NCBI RefSeq assembly: GCF_000519325.1
Contig: NZ_KI912613.1
Coordinates: 911,103-945,820 of the forward strand
Direction: 5' to 3'
DNA: 34,718 bases
DNA from: Patulibacter minatonensis DSM 18081
GTDB taxonomy: Bacteria > Actinomycetota > Thermoleophilia > Solirubrobacterales > Solirubrobacteraceae
The position numbers and the translations under genes are program-made. The notes beneath the pieces are model-generated. The model searched no databases and had not been told where the DNA came from. It was given only the letters and a program-made list of their open reading frames with translations. Shown here one piece after another: positions 8,262-16,280 of this stretch. The number at the start of each line of letters is the position of its first letter. Positions within the stretch are counted from its first letter, which is position 1.

Positions 8262-11200
8262 ATGGCGCAACGACCCTCCGTCGTGGTCTCCGAGGCCACC
8301 TCGATCCCCGATCCGGCGGACATCGCCAGGGTCGCCGCGTTTGCGCACGAGCCGTTCGTGTGCGACGGCGAGTCGGCGGACGACGTCCTCGCACCGGGGA
8401 CCATCCGGCGCCACGCGTTCGAGTTCGCCCGCGCCGAGCTCGACGCCGGCGGGACGGTCCCCTCGCAGAAGTGGCGCCGCCGCTGGTCGCTGCTCCTGGG
8501 CCTCGACCGCGCGCTGCACACCGAGACCCCGGTGCTCGCGGACGGGACGACGCTCAACCCGCACCAGATCGACGCCCTGTCCGGCACGTACGCGGCGCTC
8601 CTCGCGGACGCCCAGCGGCGGACCCGCGGCATCGGCGCGAGCGACGGCGACGCCCTGCTCCTGTCGTTCGAGGACGACGAGCCGACCGTCCACGACGAGC
8701 CGCCGCCGCAGGTCGCCCCCGTCGAGGAGGACGACCCGGAGGACGAGCTCGACGCCGAGGAGCCCGACGACGCGCCGACGGGCGACACCGGCGAGTTCGC
8801 CGCCGTCGCCGCCGCCCCGGAGGAGGACGACGAGGACGACGACGCCCAGGGCGGCATGGCGTCCCTCGAGGACGAGCTCGAGGACCTCCCCGACGCGGAG
8901 CCCGAGAACGAGTCGGCGCTCTACGACGACGAACAGGACGAGGACGTCGACGAGGACGTCGACGCCGCCGTCCTCGACGACCCCAACGCGCACAAGCGCT
9001 TCTGGTTCGAGCACGCCACGGGTGCCGGCAAGACGGTCGCCGCGATGGGCTTCGTCGAGGCCTGCCGCACCGGCGGCGTCCTGATCCTCACCCACCGCCG
9101 CAACCTCGTCGACCAGTTCATCGACGAGCTCCAGACCCGCGGCTACGGCGCGCGGCTCTCCAAGCCCCTGCTCGGCGACGCCGACATCGACACCGGGGAC
9201 TTCGACCCGGCGGCGGGCGGCCCGGTCACGATCGAGACGTACCAGTGGTTCGTCCGCAACGCCGGCCAGATCTCGGGCGCCTACACCGTCGTCATCTGCG
9301 ACGAGGCCCACACGGCGCTGGGCGAGAAGACCTCGGCCACGATCCGCGCGTGGACGGGCCCGATCTTCATCGGCATGACGGCCACGGGCGCGCTGATCGC
9401 CCGGCACGTCACCGACCTCTTCCCGACGCAGACCTCGCGCTTCGACCTCGCGCAGGCCGCCCGCCGTGGCGTCATCGCGCCGCTGCGCTCGCTGCGGATC
9501 CCACCCGGTCCCGGCGTCCGCACCATCGCGAAGGTGCCGCTGCGCAAGGGCGAGGTCGACATGGAGTTCGACCAGGACGAGCTCGCCAAGCTGCTCGACC
9601 AGGCGCCCTTCAACCTCGCGATCGCCGACCTCTACAAGACGCGCTTCCGCAACACCCCGGGCGTCGTCTACACCGCCGGCGTCCAGCACGCCTACAACGT
9701 CGCCGAGTCGTTCCGCGCGATGGACATGAAGGCCGAGGCCGTCTCGGGCGAGACCCCCAAGCGCGAGCTCGCGAAGATCCTCGCCGACTACGAGGCCGGC
9801 GAGATCGACGTCCTCGTCAACGCGCAGCTCCTGGCCGAGGGCTGGAACTCCCCGCGCGCGACCATCTGCATGCACCTGGCGCCGACGGCGTCCAAGCGCA
9901 TCTACCAGCAGCGCGTCGGCCGCGTCACCCGTCGTCACCCGGGCAAGGAGGCGGGCGTCGTCATCGACTTCGTCCACCCCGCGACGGGCAACGACGACCC
10001 GGTCGTCACGCTGCACTCGCTGCTGGACCGCGACGTCTACCGCGGCGGCGCGATCGTCGTCGGCCCCGTCCGTCGGGGCCGCGGTCGCCGCGTCAAGGTC
10101 GAGCGCCGCGTCCTCCCCGTCACGCCCGACATCGAGCGCCGGCGGCAGGTCTTCGAGCGCGAGCTGTGGCGGATCGCCGTCGAGCAGCTCGACTGGGGCG
10201 AGCAGCGCATCTGGGCCGCCCTCGCCGGCGCGAAGGCGTCGCCGACGAACTGGCGCCGCGGCCGCGCGATGCTGAACTTCGACCGCTCGGGCGAGCTCCG
10301 CAGGCAGTTCCTCATCACCGCCCTGGAGCGCAACCGCAACCAGCAGCTCCGCATGCGCGCGATCCAGGAGATCGCCGTCCTCCGCGAGGCCGAACCGTTC
10401 GACACCGCGATCGACTTCGTCGGCCAGTGGCCGCGTGAGGAGCGCCGCGAGGCCTCCCGCGTCCTCCTGCAGGCGATGGCGGACCGGCGCATCGGTCGCC
10501 GTGAGCAGGCGACCGCCTGGATCTGGCGTCTCGCCGAGTACACGCGCGACATGCACGAGGAGTACGCCGCCCAGCGCTGGCCGGCCACGAAGCACCTGCT
10601 CGGGCTGCTCGTGAACTCCTCGGGCGCCGCGCACGCCCGCAACGCCCGCCGGCTCGTCCACGCGGCGCGTCAGCACGACCGCCGGCTGCAGGCCGCGCTC
10701 CTGGCCGCCGCGGTCGCCCACACGCCGGAGGCCGAGGAGGTCCTGCGCGAGGCCCGCACCCGCCTGGCCCGCAAGCCCGGCGCGCTGTCCCGCGACCTCC
10801 TCAAGGACTTCCCGAGCGGCAAGCGGCGCAAGAAGCGCTCGCGCAACAAGAAGAAGAACGGCGGGGGCGACCAGGCCCAGAACGGCCAGAACGGCAACGG
10901 GCAGCACGGCAACGGGCAGGCCCCGGACGCCGAGGCGTCCGCCGAGGGCGACCGACAGCCCGTGGCCGTCGGCGCCGAGCCCGAGTTCGAGGCCGCGACC
11001 TTCGAGGGTGGCGGCCAGACCGGCGGCCAGCAGGGCCAGGGCGGCGGCTCCCGCCGCAGCCGCTCGCGGCGCGGTCGCTCACGCGGACGCCGGCGCGGTG
11101 GCGGTGGCGGTGGCGGCCAGAACGGTGGTCAGGGCGGACAGAACGGGCAGGAGCCGGACGGCGGCGGTCAGGACGAGCAGCAGCCGGACGGCGGTCGCCC

Positions 11201-12221
11201 CGCGCGGGGCGATGCGGACCAGCAGCGGTCCGACGGCGCCCACGACGGCGGCCCCTCGGACGCGACCGCGTCCGACGACGCCGGGGAGGCCCCGGTCCGC
11301 CGCCGTATCCGCGGGCAGAAGGCCGCCGCCCGGGCCTCCGCAGAGGCCGAGGCCCCGACGATCGGCGCCGTCGACGCCACGCAGGCCGACGATGCCCCCC
11401 GCCCCAGCCGGCGGGCCCGGCGGGCCGCGGCCGCCGAGGGCGCGACGAGCGGGTCCGAGGCCGTCATCGACGCGGCCGACGCACCGTCCGCCGCGGACAC
11501 CGCCGCCCCGAAGCCCGCGCGGACGCGCCGCAGCGCCGCGGCGGCCGCCGTGGCGCCGTCGGACGACGACGCGGCGTCCGTGAAGCAGGCCCCGGCCCGC
11601 CGCGCGACGACGGCTGACGCGACGGCCGACGACGCGGCCCCCGCGAAGAAGGCCCCGGCCCGCCGGACGACGAAGGCCGCCACAGCCGACGCGACGACCG
11701 ACGACGCGGCCCCCGCGAAGAAGACGCCGGCCCGCCGGACGACGAAGGCCGCCGCAGCGGCCGACGACGTCGCGCCGGTGAAGAAGGCCCCGGCCCGCCG
11801 GACGACGAAGGCCGCCGCGTCGACCGACGACGACGCCCCCGCCAAGAAGGCGCCCGCCCGCCGCACGACGAAGGCCACCGCAGCGGCCGACGACGCCGCC
11901 CCCGCGAAGAAGACGCCCGCCCGCCGCACGACGAAGGCCGCCGCAGCGGACGCCGCGGCCACTCCCGCCACCGCGACGAAGGCCGCCTCGAGACCCCGGA
12001 CGACCGCCGCGAAGAAGGCGCCCGCCAAGACCGCGGCGAAGCCGAGGACGACGGCCGCGAAGAAGCCCGCGGCGAAGACCGCCGCGGCGAAGGCGACCTC
12101 CGCGAAGACCACCACCGGCACGACGCGCGCCCGCGCCGCGAAGGCCGCGGCCTCCGACGAGGCGCCGAAGAAGCCCGCGACGCGACGCCGCACGACCCCG
12201 AAGGACGACGACACCCCGTGA
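8262..12221 (+). CDS. DEAD/DEAH-box superfamily 2 helicase with acidic insert and histone-H1-like tail
   Basis: A 1319-residue ATP-dependent nucleic-acid helicase. Residues 1-130 include a motif-0-like NPHQIDALSG. Residues about 137-243 are a long Asp/Glu-rich stretch. The helicase core follows: Walker A ATGAGKT near 251-257, CDEAH near 346-350, GMTATG near 371-376, a motif V region LAEGWNSPRA and motif VI QQRVGRVTRR near 549-558. After about 850 the protein is low complexity: Lys/Arg- and Gly/Gln/Asn-rich, then SRSRRGRSRGRRR, then about six Ala/Lys/Pro repeats from 1101. It ends in a Lys/Ala/Thr tail like bacterial H1/HU-beta tails. Start ATG 8262 lacks a good ribosome site; an in-frame ATG at 8130 would add 44 unconvincing residues. 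Its stop overlaps the next gene (GTGA). Target nucleic acid unknown. Confidence 0.9.
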   Translation: MAQRPSVVVSEATSIPDPADIARVAAFAHEPFVCDGESADDVLAPGTIRRHAFEFARAELDAGGTVPSQKWRRRWSLLLGLDRALHTETPVLADGTTLNPHQIDALSGTYAALLADAQRRTRGIGASDGDALLLSFEDDEPTVHDEPPPQVAPVEEDDPEDELDAEEPDDAPTGDTGEFAAVAAAPEEDDEDDDAQGGMASLEDELEDLPDAEPENESALYDDEQDEDVDEDVDAAVLDDPNAHKRFWFEHATGAGKTVAAMGFVEACRTGGVLILTHRRNLVDQFIDELQTRGYGARLSKPLLGDADIDTGDFDPAAGGPVTIETYQWFVRNAGQISGAYTVVICDEAHTALGEKTSATIRAWTGPIFIGMTATGALIARHVTDLFPTQTSRFDLAQAARRGVIAPLRSLRIPPGPGVRTIAKVPLRKGEVDMEFDQDELAKLLDQAPFNLAIADLYKTRFRNTPGVVYTAGVQHAYNVAESFRAMDMKAEAVSGETPKRELAKILADYEAGEIDVLVNAQLLAEGWNSPRATICMHLAPTASKRIYQQRVGRVTRRHPGKEAGVVIDFVHPATGNDDPVVTLHSLLDRDVYRGGAIVVGPVRRGRGRRVKVERRVLPVTPDIERRRQVFERELWRIAVEQLDWGEQRIWAALAGAKASPTNWRRGRAMLNFDRSGELRRQFLITALERNRNQQLRMRAIQEIAVLREAEPFDTAIDFVGQWPREERREASRVLLQAMADRRIGRREQATAWIWRLAEYTRDMHEEYAAQRWPATKHLLGLLVNSSGAAHARNARRLVHAARQHDRRLQAALLAAAVAHTPEAEEVLREARTRLARKPGALSRDLLKDFPSGKRRKKRSRNKKKNGGGDQAQNGQNGNGQHGNGQAPDAEASAEGDRQPVAVGAEPEFEAATFEGGGQTGGQQGQGGGSRRSRSRRGRSRGRRRGGGGGGGQNGGQGGQNGQEPDGGGQDEQQPDGGRPARGDADQQRSDGAHDGGPSDATASDDAGEAPVRRRIRGQKAAARASAEAEAPTIGAVDATQADDAPRPSRRARRAAAAEGATSGSEAVIDAADAPSAADTAAPKPARTRRSAAAAAVAPSDDDAASVKQAPARRATTADATADDAAPAKKAPARRTTKAATADATTDDAAPAKKTPARRTTKAAAAADDVAPVKKAPARRTTKAAASTDDDAPAKKAPARRTTKATAAADDAAPAKKTPARRTTKAAAADAAATPATATKAASRPRTTAAKKAPAKTAAKPRTTAAKKPAAKTAAAKATSAKTTTGTTRARAAKAAASDEAPKKPATRRRTTPKDDDTP
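11562..11951 (+). repeat. In-gene tandem repeat encoding Ala/Lys/Pro/Arg units
   Basis: Six consecutive units of about 63-72 bases encode variants of DDAAPAKKAPARRTTKAA. Codon-level identity is high between neighbours. Units differ by insertion of short ADAT stretches, suggesting recent unequal exchange or slippage. All units keep the frame. Confidence 0.9.
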
Positions 12222-13307: not shown

Positions 13308-15614
13308 ATGACCGTTGCCGCACCCCGTCGCGTCACGTTCAGTCGGAACCACACGCTGTCGTTGTCGCGGACGTGTTCGTCGGTGTGCAAGTACTGCGCG
13401 TTCGCGACCCGCAAGTTCCATCTGCACACGAAGGACGAGGTCCTGGCGATCCTCGACGAGGCCGTCAAGCGCCGCGCGAAGGAGCTCCTGATCCTCACCG
13501 GCGAGGAGCCCGACAGTCATCCCGAGGTCGCCGCGACGCTGAAGGAGTGGGGCTTCACCGACTTCGTCGACTACGTCGTCTGGGCCGGCGAGCGCGCGCT
13601 CGAGCGCGGGCTGCTGCCGCACACGAACCTCGGCGCGGTCACGAAGGAGCAGCTCGCGCGGCTGCGGACGGTCACCGCGTCGCAGGGCGTGATGCTCGAG
13701 TCGATCTCCGAGCGGCTGATGGAGACCGTGCACGCCGGGTCGCCGTCGAAGCACCCGCAGCGGCGCCTCGCGACGCTGCGCGCCGCCGGCGAGCTGAAGA
13801 TCCCGTTCACCACCGGGATCCTCGTCGGGATCGGCGAGACGAAGCAGGAGCGCTTCGACTCGCTCGCCGCGCTCGCGGAGGTCCAGGCCGAATTCGGCCA
13901 CCTGCAGGAGATCATCCTCCAGAACTTCGTCCCGCACGAGCGGTACTACGGGCGCGACGTCGGGGCGATCGCCGACGAGGCCGCACGCGAGTACTGGCGC
14001 ACCGGCATCGGCGACCATCGGCCCAGCCTGGGGCTGCCGGCGTGGGCGAACCCGATCTCGATCGCCGACATGGTCGAGCTCGTCGAGGAGACCCGGCGGT
14101 TGATGCCGGACATCGGCATCCAGATCCCGCCGAACCTCGCCGACTGGTGGCCCGAGCTCGTCGCCGCCGGCGCGACCGACCTCGGCGGTCTCTCCGCCAA
14201 CGGCGACCACATCTCGCCCGAGCACCCGTTCCCGTCGCCGACGCAGGTGCGGGCGCAGCTGAAGCCGCAGGGCGTCGCGCTGTCCGAGCGGCTCTGCGTC
14301 TACGGGCAGTACATCGACGAGACGTGGATCGACCCCGCCGTCCTCGACGCGATCACCGTCAAGTACTGGACCTTCATCCCGCGCGGCACGTCCGGCCGGT
14401 CCGAGGCCCCGTTCGTCATCGACCGGGGCCTCGTCGCCCCCGCGCTGGAGAAGGCGCGCGACGGCGTGCAGCTGTCGGAAGAGGAGCTGACGGCCCTCTT
14501 CGTCGAGCGCGACCCGGTCGCGGTCGAGGAGATCCGCGTCGCCGCGGACGAGCTGCGCCGTGAGCTCGCGGGCGACACCGTCTCGTTCGTCGTCAACCGC
14601 AACCTGAACCTCTCCAACGTCTGCACGGTCGGCTGCGCGTTCTGTGGCTTCGGGCAGTCCAAGCGCTCCCCCGACGCCTACGACGTGTCGGAGGAGGAGT
14701 TCGAGGCCCGCGTCAGGGACGCCGTCGACTACGGCGCCACCGAGCTCTGCATCCAGTCCGGGATCCACCCCGACTGGACGCTGGACGACTACCTCCGCTG
14801 GCTCCGGCTCGCCAAGGAGTTCGGGCTCCGCCACGGCCGCGACCTGCACCTCCACGCGTACTCGCCGATGGAGATCGCGCACATGGCCGACATCTCCGGC
14901 CTGCCGCTGCACGAGCTCTTCCCGCTCCTGCGCGAGGCCGGTCTCGGCTCGACGCCCGGCACCGCCGCCGAGGTCCTCGTCGACGGGATGCGCCAGCGGA
15001 TCTCGCCGAACAAGCTGCCGGTGCAGCGGTGGGTCGACGTCATCCAGGCGTCGCACCGCGCCGGGCTGAAGTCCACCTCGACCGTGATGTTCGGGCACAT
15101 CGAGGAGCCCTGGGAGCTCGCCCAGCACATGCGCCTGATCCGCCGGGTCCAGGAGGAGACCGGCGGCATCACCGAGTTCGTGCCCCTGTCGTTCATCCCG
15201 TTCCAGACGCGCCTGGGCCGGACGCACGGCGTCGAGGAGATCACGATCGAGGACAACCTCAAGCACACCGCCGTCTTCCGGCTCGCGCTCGGACGCAGCA
15301 TCCGGAACGTCCAGGCCTCCTGGGTGAAGATGGGCCTGCAGGGCGCGACCGAGGCCCTGCGCTGGGGCGTCAACGACCTCGGCGGCACGCTGATGGAGGA
15401 GAACATCTCCCGCCTCGCCGGCGCCGCCCACGGCACGATCCTCCACCCGCACCAGCTCGCCCGGGCCGCCCACGACGCCGGTCGCCCCGCCGCCGAGCGC
15501 ACCACCACCTACGGCACGATCGAGCATTACCCGATCGGCGAGCTGCCGCTCGAGCCCGGCGCCGACCACGAGTACGTCGGCGGCGCGCTCCCCACCGCCG
15601 TCGCGGTCGCCTGA
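13308..15614 (+). CDS. fbiC: FO synthase, fused CofG-CofH (coenzyme F420 biosynthesis)
   Basis: A 768-residue double radical-SAM enzyme that makes the deazaflavin FO from tyrosine and the pyrimidine 5-amino-6-ribitylamino-uracil, the first committed step to F420. The CofG half carries the 4Fe-4S motif CSSVCKYC with Cys 23, 27 and 30. The CofH half carries CTVGCAFC with Cys 439, 443 and 446. The later block TSTVMFGHIEEPWE and the IPFQTRLGRTHG region are typical of CofH. The single-chain fusion is the actinobacterial form. The class II aldolase gene follows after three bases. The two LLM-class genes at the right end are possible F420 users. Both halves look intact. Confidence 0.97.
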   Translation: MTVAAPRRVTFSRNHTLSLSRTCSSVCKYCAFATRKFHLHTKDEVLAILDEAVKRRAKELLILTGEEPDSHPEVAATLKEWGFTDFVDYVVWAGERALERGLLPHTNLGAVTKEQLARLRTVTASQGVMLESISERLMETVHAGSPSKHPQRRLATLRAAGELKIPFTTGILVGIGETKQERFDSLAALAEVQAEFGHLQEIILQNFVPHERYYGRDVGAIADEAAREYWRTGIGDHRPSLGLPAWANPISIADMVELVEETRRLMPDIGIQIPPNLADWWPELVAAGATDLGGLSANGDHISPEHPFPSPTQVRAQLKPQGVALSERLCVYGQYIDETWIDPAVLDAITVKYWTFIPRGTSGRSEAPFVIDRGLVAPALEKARDGVQLSEEELTALFVERDPVAVEEIRVAADELRRELAGDTVSFVVNRNLNLSNVCTVGCAFCGFGQSKRSPDAYDVSEEEFEARVRDAVDYGATELCIQSGIHPDWTLDDYLRWLRLAKEFGLRHGRDLHLHAYSPMEIAHMADISGLPLHELFPLLREAGLGSTPGTAAEVLVDGMRQRISPNKLPVQRWVDVIQASHRAGLKSTSTVMFGHIEEPWELAQHMRLIRRVQEETGGITEFVPLSFIPFQTRLGRTHGVEEITIEDNLKHTAVFRLALGRSIRNVQASWVKMGLQGATEALRWGVNDLGGTLMEENISRLAGAAHGTILHPHQLARAAHDAGRPAAERTTTYGTIEHYPIGELPLEPGADHEYVGGALPTAVAVA

Positions 15615-15617
15615 GCC

Positions 15618-16280
15618 ATGCCGGGTCGCCGCCGCAGCCGTCGGGCCCGCATCGCGGACCACGCGCTCCTGCGGGGCGCCGCCGAGGTCGCCCGCACGCT
15701 CGAGCCCGAGGGCCTCGTGGTCGGCACCGTCGGGAACGTCTCGGTCCGCACCGGCCCGACCGTCCACGTGACCCCGACGCGCACCGGCTACGCCGCGATG
15801 TGCGCCCGCGACCTCGTCATGGTCGACGTCGCCTCCGGGGTCGTCCTCGGCGCCGGAACGCCGTCGCGGGAGCTGCCCCTGCACCTCGCCGTCTACCGCG
15901 CGCGACCCGACGTCGGCTGTGTCCTCCACACCCACAGCGTCGCCGCGACCGCGTGGAGCTTCCTCGACGAGCCGCTGCAGCCGGAGCTCGAGGACCTCGC
16001 CTACCACGGCATCGCGCCCGTCCGCACGAGCCCGCACGCCGACGCCGGCACCGAGGCGCTCGCGACCGCCGCCGCCACGACCCTCGGCCCCGACACCGCG
16101 GTCCTCCTCGGCCGCCACGGCGTGCTGACGGTCGGCGCGACCCCGGCGGACGCCCTCCTCGCGGCCCGCGTGGTCGAGCGCCAGGCCCGCGTCGCCTGGC
16201 TCGTCCGCGGCGCGGCGCCGTGGGCCACGGGCGTGGCGTCGGCGGTGCTCGACGACGTCGCCGGCAGCTCGACCGGCTGA
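15618..16280 (+). CDS. Class II aldolase/adducin-family protein (fuculose-phosphate aldolase-like)
   Basis: A 220-residue cytoplasmic zinc-dependent lyase candidate. The substrate-phosphate loop GNVS is at 39-42, the candidate catalytic Glu at 85 (PSRELPLH), and the zinc ligands are the HTH pair His104 and His106 plus His167 in LLGRHG. Family members cleave sugar 1-phosphates to dihydroxyacetone phosphate and an aldehyde, or act on related methylthio-sugars; adducin-like relatives lack activity, but the metal ligands are kept here. The ATG lies three bases after the fbiC stop, so the genes should be co-transcribed. A role in F420 side-chain supply is considered in the findings. Confidence 0.88.
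   Translation: MPGRRRSRRARIADHALLRGAAEVARTLEPEGLVVGTVGNVSVRTGPTVHVTPTRTGYAAMCARDLVMVDVASGVVLGAGTPSRELPLHLAVYRARPDVGCVLHTHSVAATAWSFLDEPLQPELEDLAYHGIAPVRTSPHADAGTEALATAAATTLGPDTAVLLGRHGVLTVGATPADALLAARVVERQARVAWLVRGAAPWATGVASAVLDDVAGSSTG

What the first reader, a model, noticed from the sequence alone, without database searches (positions are those of the whole stretch)
13308..16280. fbiC is three bases from a class II aldolase: possible F420 side-chain supply
In Methanocaldococcus a fuculose-phosphate-type class II aldolase was proposed to give lactaldehyde, then lactate for F420. Known bacterial routes use phosphoenolpyruvate or 3-phosphoglycerate instead. The aldolase has full zinc ligands and is tightly coupled to fbiC here, so it may supply an F420 precursor, or salvage a by-product of radical-SAM chemistry (5'-deoxyadenosine-derived sugar phosphates, also class II aldolase substrates).
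Basis: partly seen in the sequence, partly recalled or inferred. Interest (0 to 1): 0.6.

Follow-up and report, generated by a model that had tools for sequence, protein, structure and literature searches.

The report
FO synthase gene paired with aldolase
In soil actinobacteria of the order Solirubrobacterales, the gene for the first enzyme of coenzyme F420 synthesis is repeatedly found in one operon with an uncharacterised aldolase, even after being copied or moved in the genome, so the aldolase probably serves that enzyme's reaction; what it acts on is unknown.

Summary
A full-length fbiC (FO synthase, CofG-CofH fusion) ends 3 nt before a class II aldolase with intact metal ligands. The pair is not a strain oddity: I found it directly adjacent and co-directional in 13 genomes (probably 14), in 6-7 genera and two families of Solirubrobacterales, with different genes around it. 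In aldolase-bearing Patulibacter, fbiC has left its ancestral place (SBP-fbiC-greA-cofE-cofC-cofD) and exists only beside the aldolase; a Patulibacter without the aldolase keeps fbiC in place. In five other genomes the pair carries an extra fbiC copy. The constant partner is FbiC itself, so the aldolase probably serves the FbiC step. The proposed supply of the F420 lactyl group is possible (this lineage lacks the FbiB reductase domain) but not favoured: most F420-gene carriers of the order lack the aldolase, CofC looks the same across genomes, and the genome has a separate rhamnulose-phosphate aldolase/dehydrogenase. Salvage of FbiC's 5'-deoxyadenosine fits better (sister aldolases sit beside mtnA; the predicted fold matches DrdA and FucA), but the needed isomerase MtnA is missing from these genomes. 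The substrate remains open.

The parts
13308..15614 (+). fbiC: bifunctional FO synthase (CofG half then CofH half), 768 aa
   Evidence: NCBIfam TIGR03550 CofG and TIGR03551 CofH over cut-offs; only fbiC hit in the genome
13374..13397 (+). CofG-half radical SAM motif CSSVCKYC
   Evidence: read from the sequence; motif scan
14622..14645 (+). CofH-half radical SAM motif CTVGCAFC
   Evidence: read from the sequence; motif scan
15615..15617 (+). three-base gap (GCC) between the fbiC stop and the aldolase start
   Evidence: sequence; gaps of about -4 to +5 nt in relatives
15618..16280 (+). class II aldolase/adducin-family enzyme (DrdA/FucA fold), 220 aa
   Evidence: Pfam PF00596 149 bits; model pLDDT 94.5, best matches DrdA 6btd/6btg Z 28.9 and FucA Z 28.1
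15870..15872 (+). Glu85, equivalent of FucA Glu73
   Evidence: alignment
15927..15935 (+). His104-Thr-His106, metal ligands (FucA His92, His94)
   Evidence: alignment
16116..16118 (+). His167, metal ligand (FucA His155)
   Evidence: alignment

Best explanation
fbiC and the aldolase form a conserved two-gene operon in Solirubrobacterales that is inherited, copied and moved as a unit. Shown here: adjacency in 13-14 genomes under varied surroundings, relocation of fbiC out of the ancestral F420 locus in Patulibacter, and extra fbiC copies kept beside an aldolase elsewhere. Inferred: the aldolase is an auxiliary enzyme of the FbiC step and not a supplier of the C3 side chain. The most likely mechanism is disposal or recovery of what FbiC releases. 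Each FO made releases two 5'-deoxyadenosines; a phosphorylase or nucleosidase would give 5-deoxyribose (1-phosphate), an isomerisation the 5-deoxyketose phosphate, and this enzyme would cleave it to DHAP and acetaldehyde, as DrdA does. The isomerase step is unaccounted for, so the exact substrate is a guess.
For: Adjacent pair in G000, G033, G069 (Patulibacter americanus), G075, G135, G222, G179, G087, G165, G153 (Conexibacter MAG), G160, G162, G077 and probably G139. Surroundings differ (ADH/methyltransferase, hydantoinases plus LLM, P450/BVMO, sugar transport, PucR/XdhC), while FbiC is constant. fbiC is absent from between SBP and greA in G000, G069 and G075 but present there in aldolase-less G081. 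Extra fbiC copies beside the aldolase in G087, G153, G160, G162 and G179. The sister clade (inside a 100/100 clade) is mtnA-linked in G025, G034 and G058, MtnA over the TIGR00512 cut-off in the two tested. Best structural match is DrdA, tied with FucA. FO synthase yields two 5'-deoxyadenosines (PMC8571402), an inhibitor salvaged by kinase/phosphorylase, isomerase and class II aldolase (PMC6079011). G000 has an MTAP-like phosphorylase (144 bits, under its 275 cut-off). The aldolase is under purifying selection, dN/dS about 0.28-0.48.
Against: No MtnA/DrdI-type isomerase (PF01008) in 12 of the 13 firmly paired genomes; the exception, G153, has only a fragment at a contig start, 36 bits. One aldolase-clade member sits beside npdG (G083), and four others near neither gene. 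The pocket differs from FucA and from the mtnA-linked sisters: FucA Gly44 and Ser72 are both replaced, mostly by Arg, hinting at another substrate. In E. coli the DHAP shunt was not needed to relieve 5'-deoxyadenosine toxicity (PMC10986504).
Confidence: 0.35

Rival explanations
1. F420 side-chain supply: the aldolase cleaves a 6-deoxyketose 1-phosphate to DHAP and L-lactaldehyde, which is oxidised to lactate, phosphorylated to 2-phospholactate and used by CofC/CofD. The operon would then pack the two precursor branches of F420 together.
For: CofE is single-domain and no FbiB-type reductase passes the cut-off in 10 genomes tested, so the PEP route lacks its known last step here; the origin of 2-phospholactate is an acknowledged gap (PMC8498797; PMC6450877). 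One clade member is beside npdG, an F420 gene (G083). CofC has Gly at the FbiD-163 position, so it is not of the 3-phosphoglycerate type.
Against: fbiC occurs in 140/151 genomes of the order, the aldolase clade in few. The missing FbiB domain does not track the aldolase (G081 lacks the aldolase), and CofC residues do not track the fbiC-aldolase pair. The aldolase is linked to fbiC and not to cofC/cofD/cofE. G000 has a RhaD-aldolase/dehydrogenase, TIGR02632 808 vs 568 bits, an independent lactaldehyde source. FucA Tyr113, Ser72 and Gly44 are replaced.
Confidence: 0.2
2. Catabolic cargo: fbiC copies provide FO/F420 for F420-dependent oxidoreductases of catabolic clusters, and the aldolase cleaves an intermediate of that catabolism; Patulibacter inherited the pair from such a cluster.
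For: In G160 the order is hyuA-hyuB-NTF2-LLM-fbiC-aldolase on one strand; G087 copy 3 lies near hyuA/hyuB and GntR regulators; G083 and G077 aldolases lie among transporters, dehydrogenases or a sugar isomerase.
Against: No catabolic partner is shared by all pairs; only FbiC is constant. In Patulibacter the pair stands beside unrelated genes and holds the only fbiC.
Confidence: 0.2
3. Handling of another FbiC by-product: FbiC cleaves tyrosine and releases the glycine-imine that hydrolyses to glyoxylate (established CofH chemistry, from general knowledge). The enzyme would add a phosphorylated ketone donor to glyoxylate or a related aldehyde, or decarboxylate a related acid.
For: Class II aldolase-family enzymes include decarboxylases, and one member of this clade scores best against 3-oxo-tetronate-4-phosphate decarboxylase (L200, 110 bits, cut-off 250). 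The basic residues in the pocket could bind a carboxylate.
Against: No scoring model passes its cut-off and no neighbour shared by the pairs points to glyoxylate chemistry; this is reasoning from chemistry only.
Confidence: 0.1
4. Chance or simple shared descent: the genes are neighbours because no rearrangement has separated them.
For: Within Patulibacter some other neighbours are also shared (ADH, methyltransferase).
Against: Other neighbours are broken up or replaced while this pair stays within about 5 nt; the pair joins phylogenetically different fbiC copies in several genera.
Confidence: 0.03

Closest known systems
FbiC / CofGH FO synthase
   Same: CofG and CofH halves with both CxxxCxxC motifs; CofG and CofH models over cut-off
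   Different: Under the full-length PRK09234 cut-off (648 vs 1018 bits) and starting right at the CofG domain; lies in an operon with an aldolase away from cofE-cofC-cofD
DrdA / Ald2, 5-deoxyribulose-1-phosphate aldolase of the DHAP shunt
   Same: Fold (Z 28.9 to 6btd/6btg), metal ligands, sister clade beside mtnA
   Different: No mtnA/drdI in the paired genomes; altered phosphate-pocket residues; partner is fbiC
[quoted passage not shown]
   Same: Fold (Z about 28) and Glu/His/His/His metal site
   Different: FucA models not reached (81-101 bits vs cut-offs 250-400); Tyr113 replaced by Glu, Ser72 by Arg, Gly44 by Arg
MtnB methylthioribulose-1-phosphate dehydratase
   Same: Same superfamily; acidic residue at the Tyr113 position, as I recall for MtnB (not checked)
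   Different: 62 bits vs cut-off 137; structural match weaker (APIP Z 21)

Membership tests
FbiC bifunctional FO synthase | CofG and CofH domains over curated cut-offs | tested here: met
   TIGR03550 345 vs 213; TIGR03551 440 vs 374 bits
FbiC bifunctional FO synthase | Two intact CxxxCxxC radical SAM motifs | tested here: met
   CSSVCKYC and CTVGCAFC
FbiC bifunctional FO synthase | Full-length equivalog PRK09234 cut-off | tested here: not met
   648 vs 1018 bits; not a defining requirement of FO synthase, since both domain models pass
FbiC bifunctional FO synthase | Makes FO | not testable with these tools
   Inferred: only fbiC of the genome, with cofC/D/E present
Class II aldolase/adducin superfamily | PF00596 over cut-off and Glu/His/His/His metal site | tested here: met
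   149 vs 22 bits; residues
[quoted passage not shown]
   TIGR01086 81 vs 400; FucA_Meth 90 vs 250 bits
[quoted passage not shown]
   Glu125, Arg55, Arg84 at these positions
DrdA/Ald2 5-deoxyribulose-1-P aldolase (DHAP shunt) | Fold of DrdA | tested here: met
   6btd/6btg Z 28.9, rmsd 2.3, 187 aligned, but tied with FucA
DrdA/Ald2 5-deoxyribulose-1-P aldolase (DHAP shunt) | MtnA/DrdI isomerase in the genome or cluster | tested here: not met
   No PF01008 match in G000 or the other paired genomes except a fragment in G153
DrdA/Ald2 5-deoxyribulose-1-P aldolase (DHAP shunt) | Cleaves 5-deoxyribulose-1-phosphate | not testable with these tools
   needs an enzyme assay
MtnB dehydratase | TIGR03328 cut-off | tested here: not met
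   62 vs 137 bits
PEP route of F420 (FbiD plus FbiB reductase domain) | FbiB C-terminal reductase domain | tested here: not met
   TIGR03553 over cut-off in 0 of 10 genomes; CofE is 248 aa, one domain; a divergent stand-alone reductase is not excluded
3PG-F420 route | Ser at CofC position 162 (Mycetohabitans) | tested here: not met
   Gly in G000 and in relatives with that column aligned

The most novel reading that the evidence does not exclude
A cofactor-making radical SAM enzyme is permanently coupled in one operon to a dedicated aldolase that recycles its own by-product by a route without MtnA, and this pair displaced the original fbiC in Patulibacter.
Probability: 0.25. Interest if true: 0.7.

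Novelty: new variant of a known kind. Interest (0 to 1): 0.5.

Why it matters
Two open questions become testable in one operon: how bacteria without the FbiB reductase domain obtain the F420 lactyl group, and how radical SAM cofactor enzymes dispose of 5'-deoxyadenosine. The pair also offers a helper gene that could raise FO/F420 yields in engineered hosts. I found no paper describing an fbiC-aldolase pair in the open-access library searched.

Tried and rejected
Chance adjacency: rejected by recurrence with varied flanks. Assigning the aldolase to a named NCBIfam equivalog: none passes its cut-off. The order-wide tables first suggested that several aldolases (G033, G135, G162, G165, G077, G139) were unpaired; reading the contig ends showed fbiC tails or the aldolase start there, so contig breaks had hidden the pairing. 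A fucose source (PF02952): only sub-cut-off matches in G000, which fall in the rhamnose operon region. The 2006 Methanocaldococcus lactaldehyde dehydrogenase paper is not held; that precedent rests on PMC8498797. RNA fold around the junction is unremarkable, z 0.55. A first pfam/ncbifam call failed on a wrong methyltransferase start. My first reading placed the FucA Tyr113 equivalent elsewhere; the alignment with FucA puts it at Glu125.

Full report
WHAT IS THERE. The window lies in a 5.52 Mb single-contig genome (G000:C1:911103-945820). Its nearest named relative is Patulibacter americanus (L100; same genus as G069), so it is a Patulibacter or very close. fbiC occupies 13308-15614 and the aldolase 15618-16280, same strand, three bases apart. 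FbiC passes the CofG and CofH cut-offs and has both radical SAM motifs. The aldolase is a clear class II aldolase/adducin-family protein with the full metal site, but no NCBIfam equivalog (FucA, AraD, MtnB, OtnC and others) reaches its cut-off. No promoter- or terminator-like site was found around the junction, and the 3-base gap leaves no room for a separate regulatory region.

IS THE PAIR CONSERVED? In 151 genomes of the order, fbiC is found in 140. Close relatives of the aldolase are rare: 16 of 146 genomes of the family at E <= 1e-30 and 17 of 399 of the class at E <= 1e-35, all in the same order. In these the aldolase follows fbiC directly on the same strand in Patulibacter genomes G000, G033, G069, G075, G135 and G222, and in G179, G087, G165, G153 (a Conexibacter MAG, also L101), G160, G162 and G077 (a different family), probably also G139. 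For G033, G135, G162, G165, G077 and G139 a contig break runs close to the junction; an fbiC C-terminus upstream of the aldolase, or in G033 the aldolase start after the fbiC stop, is visible at the contig end. The G139 tail is only 15 residues and counts as probable. Where both ends are resolved the spacing is about -4 to +5 nt. Chance adjacency in genomes of roughly 5,000 genes would be of order 1 in 5,000 per fbiC copy (inference).

PHYLOGENY. In a tree of 116 aldolases, 22 Solirubrobacterales sequences form one clade with full support (100/100). Its first branch is three proteins of another family (G025, G034, G058) that overlap or abut mtnA; the MtnA of G025 and G058 passes TIGR00512. The remaining 19 (98/89) comprise the fbiC-linked ones plus five without fbiC: G083 (beside npdG, which passes TIGR01915), G144, G219, G140 and a second copy in G160. 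Further out, many mtnA-linked aldolases occur across phyla (25 of 80 loci). The fbiC tree shows that aldolase-linked fbiCs are not one lineage: in Patulibacter it is the native gene; in G160 it is sister to the other fbiC of the same genome; in G087 it is sister to that genome's copy 2; in G153 it groups with G162. G179 falls inside Patulibacter, which could be transfer or contamination of that MAG.

RELOCATION OF fbiC. The ancestral F420 locus of the order reads gcvT-mntR-nramp-DUF-SBP-fbiC-greA-cofE-cofC-cofD(-npdG), seen whole or in part in G144, G081, G083, G087 copy 1, G153 and G162. In G000, G069 and G075 the SBP and greA genes remain but fbiC is missing from between them, and the only fbiC hit in those genomes is the aldolase-linked one. 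G081, a Patulibacter in which no close aldolase was found, keeps fbiC in the old place. In G087, G153, G160, G162 and G179 the aldolase-linked fbiC is an additional copy. All complete copies checked have both radical SAM motifs. The fixed element amid changing neighbours (hydantoinases with LLM in G160; hydantoinases and GntR in G087; P450 and BVMO genes in G179; sugar transport and a SIS protein in G077; PucR/XdhC in G162) is FbiC itself (neighbours without a score are named from my reading of their sequences). I take this as the main argument that the aldolase serves the FbiC step.

THE ENZYME. An AlphaFold2 model (pLDDT 94.5, pTM 0.88) matches DrdA of Bacillus thuringiensis best (6btd/6btg, Z 28.9, rmsd 2.3 over 187 residues) with FucA tied (Z 28.1); YgbL 25, AraD 24, decarboxylases about 22 and MtnB (APIP) 21 come lower. 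The fold does not fix the substrate. Against FucA the metal ligands are kept, but Gly44, Ser72 and Tyr113 are Arg55, Arg84 and Glu125 here. In the fbiC-linked members Glu is constant at the third site, and the first two are mostly Arg (exceptions Gln, Lys or Thr at the first, Met, Ile or another residue at the second); the mtnA-linked sisters keep Ser at the second site. Archaeal FucA-like proteins in the sample also have Asp/Glu around the third position, so loss of Tyr113 alone does not exclude lactaldehyde-forming activity. dN/dS of 0.28-0.48 for the aldolase and 0.22-0.28 for fbiC shows purifying selection; these are rough counts at high G+C.

SIDE-CHAIN SUPPLY? For: G000 has cofD-cofC-cofE with a one-domain CofE, and the FbiB reductase domain (TIGR03553) is over its cut-off in none of 10 genomes. 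Since the PEP route needs this reduction (PMC6450877), the origin of the lactyl group here is open; a stand-alone reductase, as in Thermomicrobia (cited in PMC8498797 and PMC8764529), is not excluded. Against: these traits are shared by genomes without the pair (G081 for the missing domain; G144 and G083, whose aldolase is not fbiC-linked, for CofC), CofC is not of the 3PG type, the aldolase is never beside cofC/D/E in the loci read, most F420-gene carriers lack it, and G000 has a rhamnose operon with a bifunctional rhamnulose-1-phosphate aldolase/dehydrogenase (TIGR02632, 808 vs 568 bits).

BY-PRODUCT SALVAGE? FO synthase makes two 5'-deoxyadenosines per FO (PMC8571402). 5'-Deoxyadenosine inhibits radical SAM enzymes and can be salvaged by kinase or phosphorylase, isomerase and class II aldolase (PMC6079011). 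The mtnA-linked sister clade and the DrdA-like fold fit. G000 has an MTAP-like phosphorylase, below its cut-off. But PF01008, the isomerase family, is absent from 12 of the 13 firmly paired genomes (a 36-bit fragment in G153 is the exception), although the same search finds it in 32 of 151 genomes of the order. The canonical shunt is therefore incomplete. Either another isomerase acts or the substrate is different. In E. coli the shunt served growth on 5'-deoxynucleosides and not detoxification (PMC10986504).

VERDICT. The pair is real, conserved and almost certainly functional; the aldolase most likely assists FbiC. By-product salvage is my leading mechanism at 0.35, side-chain supply 0.20, catabolic cargo 0.20, another by-product 0.10.

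Noticed in passing
L207 (G000:C1:3601373-3618257), L209, L223: fbiC is missing from the ancestral SBP-fbiC-greA-cofE-cofC-cofD locus in aldolase-bearing Patulibacter; a possible clean excision or relocation.
   Followed up: yes
L081 (G087:C1:4402698-4420372): A second fbiC in G087 lies in a cluster with a BMP-type ABC transporter, an alanine-glyoxylate-type aminotransferase, an LLM oxidoreductase and cofD, cofC and cofE: an F420 gene set inside what looks like a catabolic cluster.
   Followed up: partly
L204 (G160:C1:2990791-3007330): hyuA-hyuB-NTF2-like-LLM (TIGR03842-like, under cut-off)-fbiC-aldolase on one strand: an apparent F420-dependent catabolic operon carrying its own FO synthase.
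   Followed up: partly
L070 (G083:C87:190660-207187): A member of the same aldolase clade lies next to npdG (F420:NADPH oxidoreductase) among transporter and dehydrogenase genes.
   Followed up: partly
L075, L076, L074 (G025, G034, G058): mtnA overlaps or abuts a sister aldolase of this clade: a likely DHAP shunt in another family of Solirubrobacterales.
   Followed up: partly
L207, L209, L208, L210, L081: CofE is a single domain in every cof cluster read, and the FbiB reductase domain is over its cut-off in none of the 10 genomes searched; how dehydro-F420 is reduced, or avoided, in this order is unexplained.
   Followed up: partly
window 8283-12221 (+): Large protein with a helicase-like N-terminal part and a long Ala/Lys/Arg/Gly-rich repetitive C-terminal tail, just upstream of the ADH gene that precedes fbiC.
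   Followed up: no
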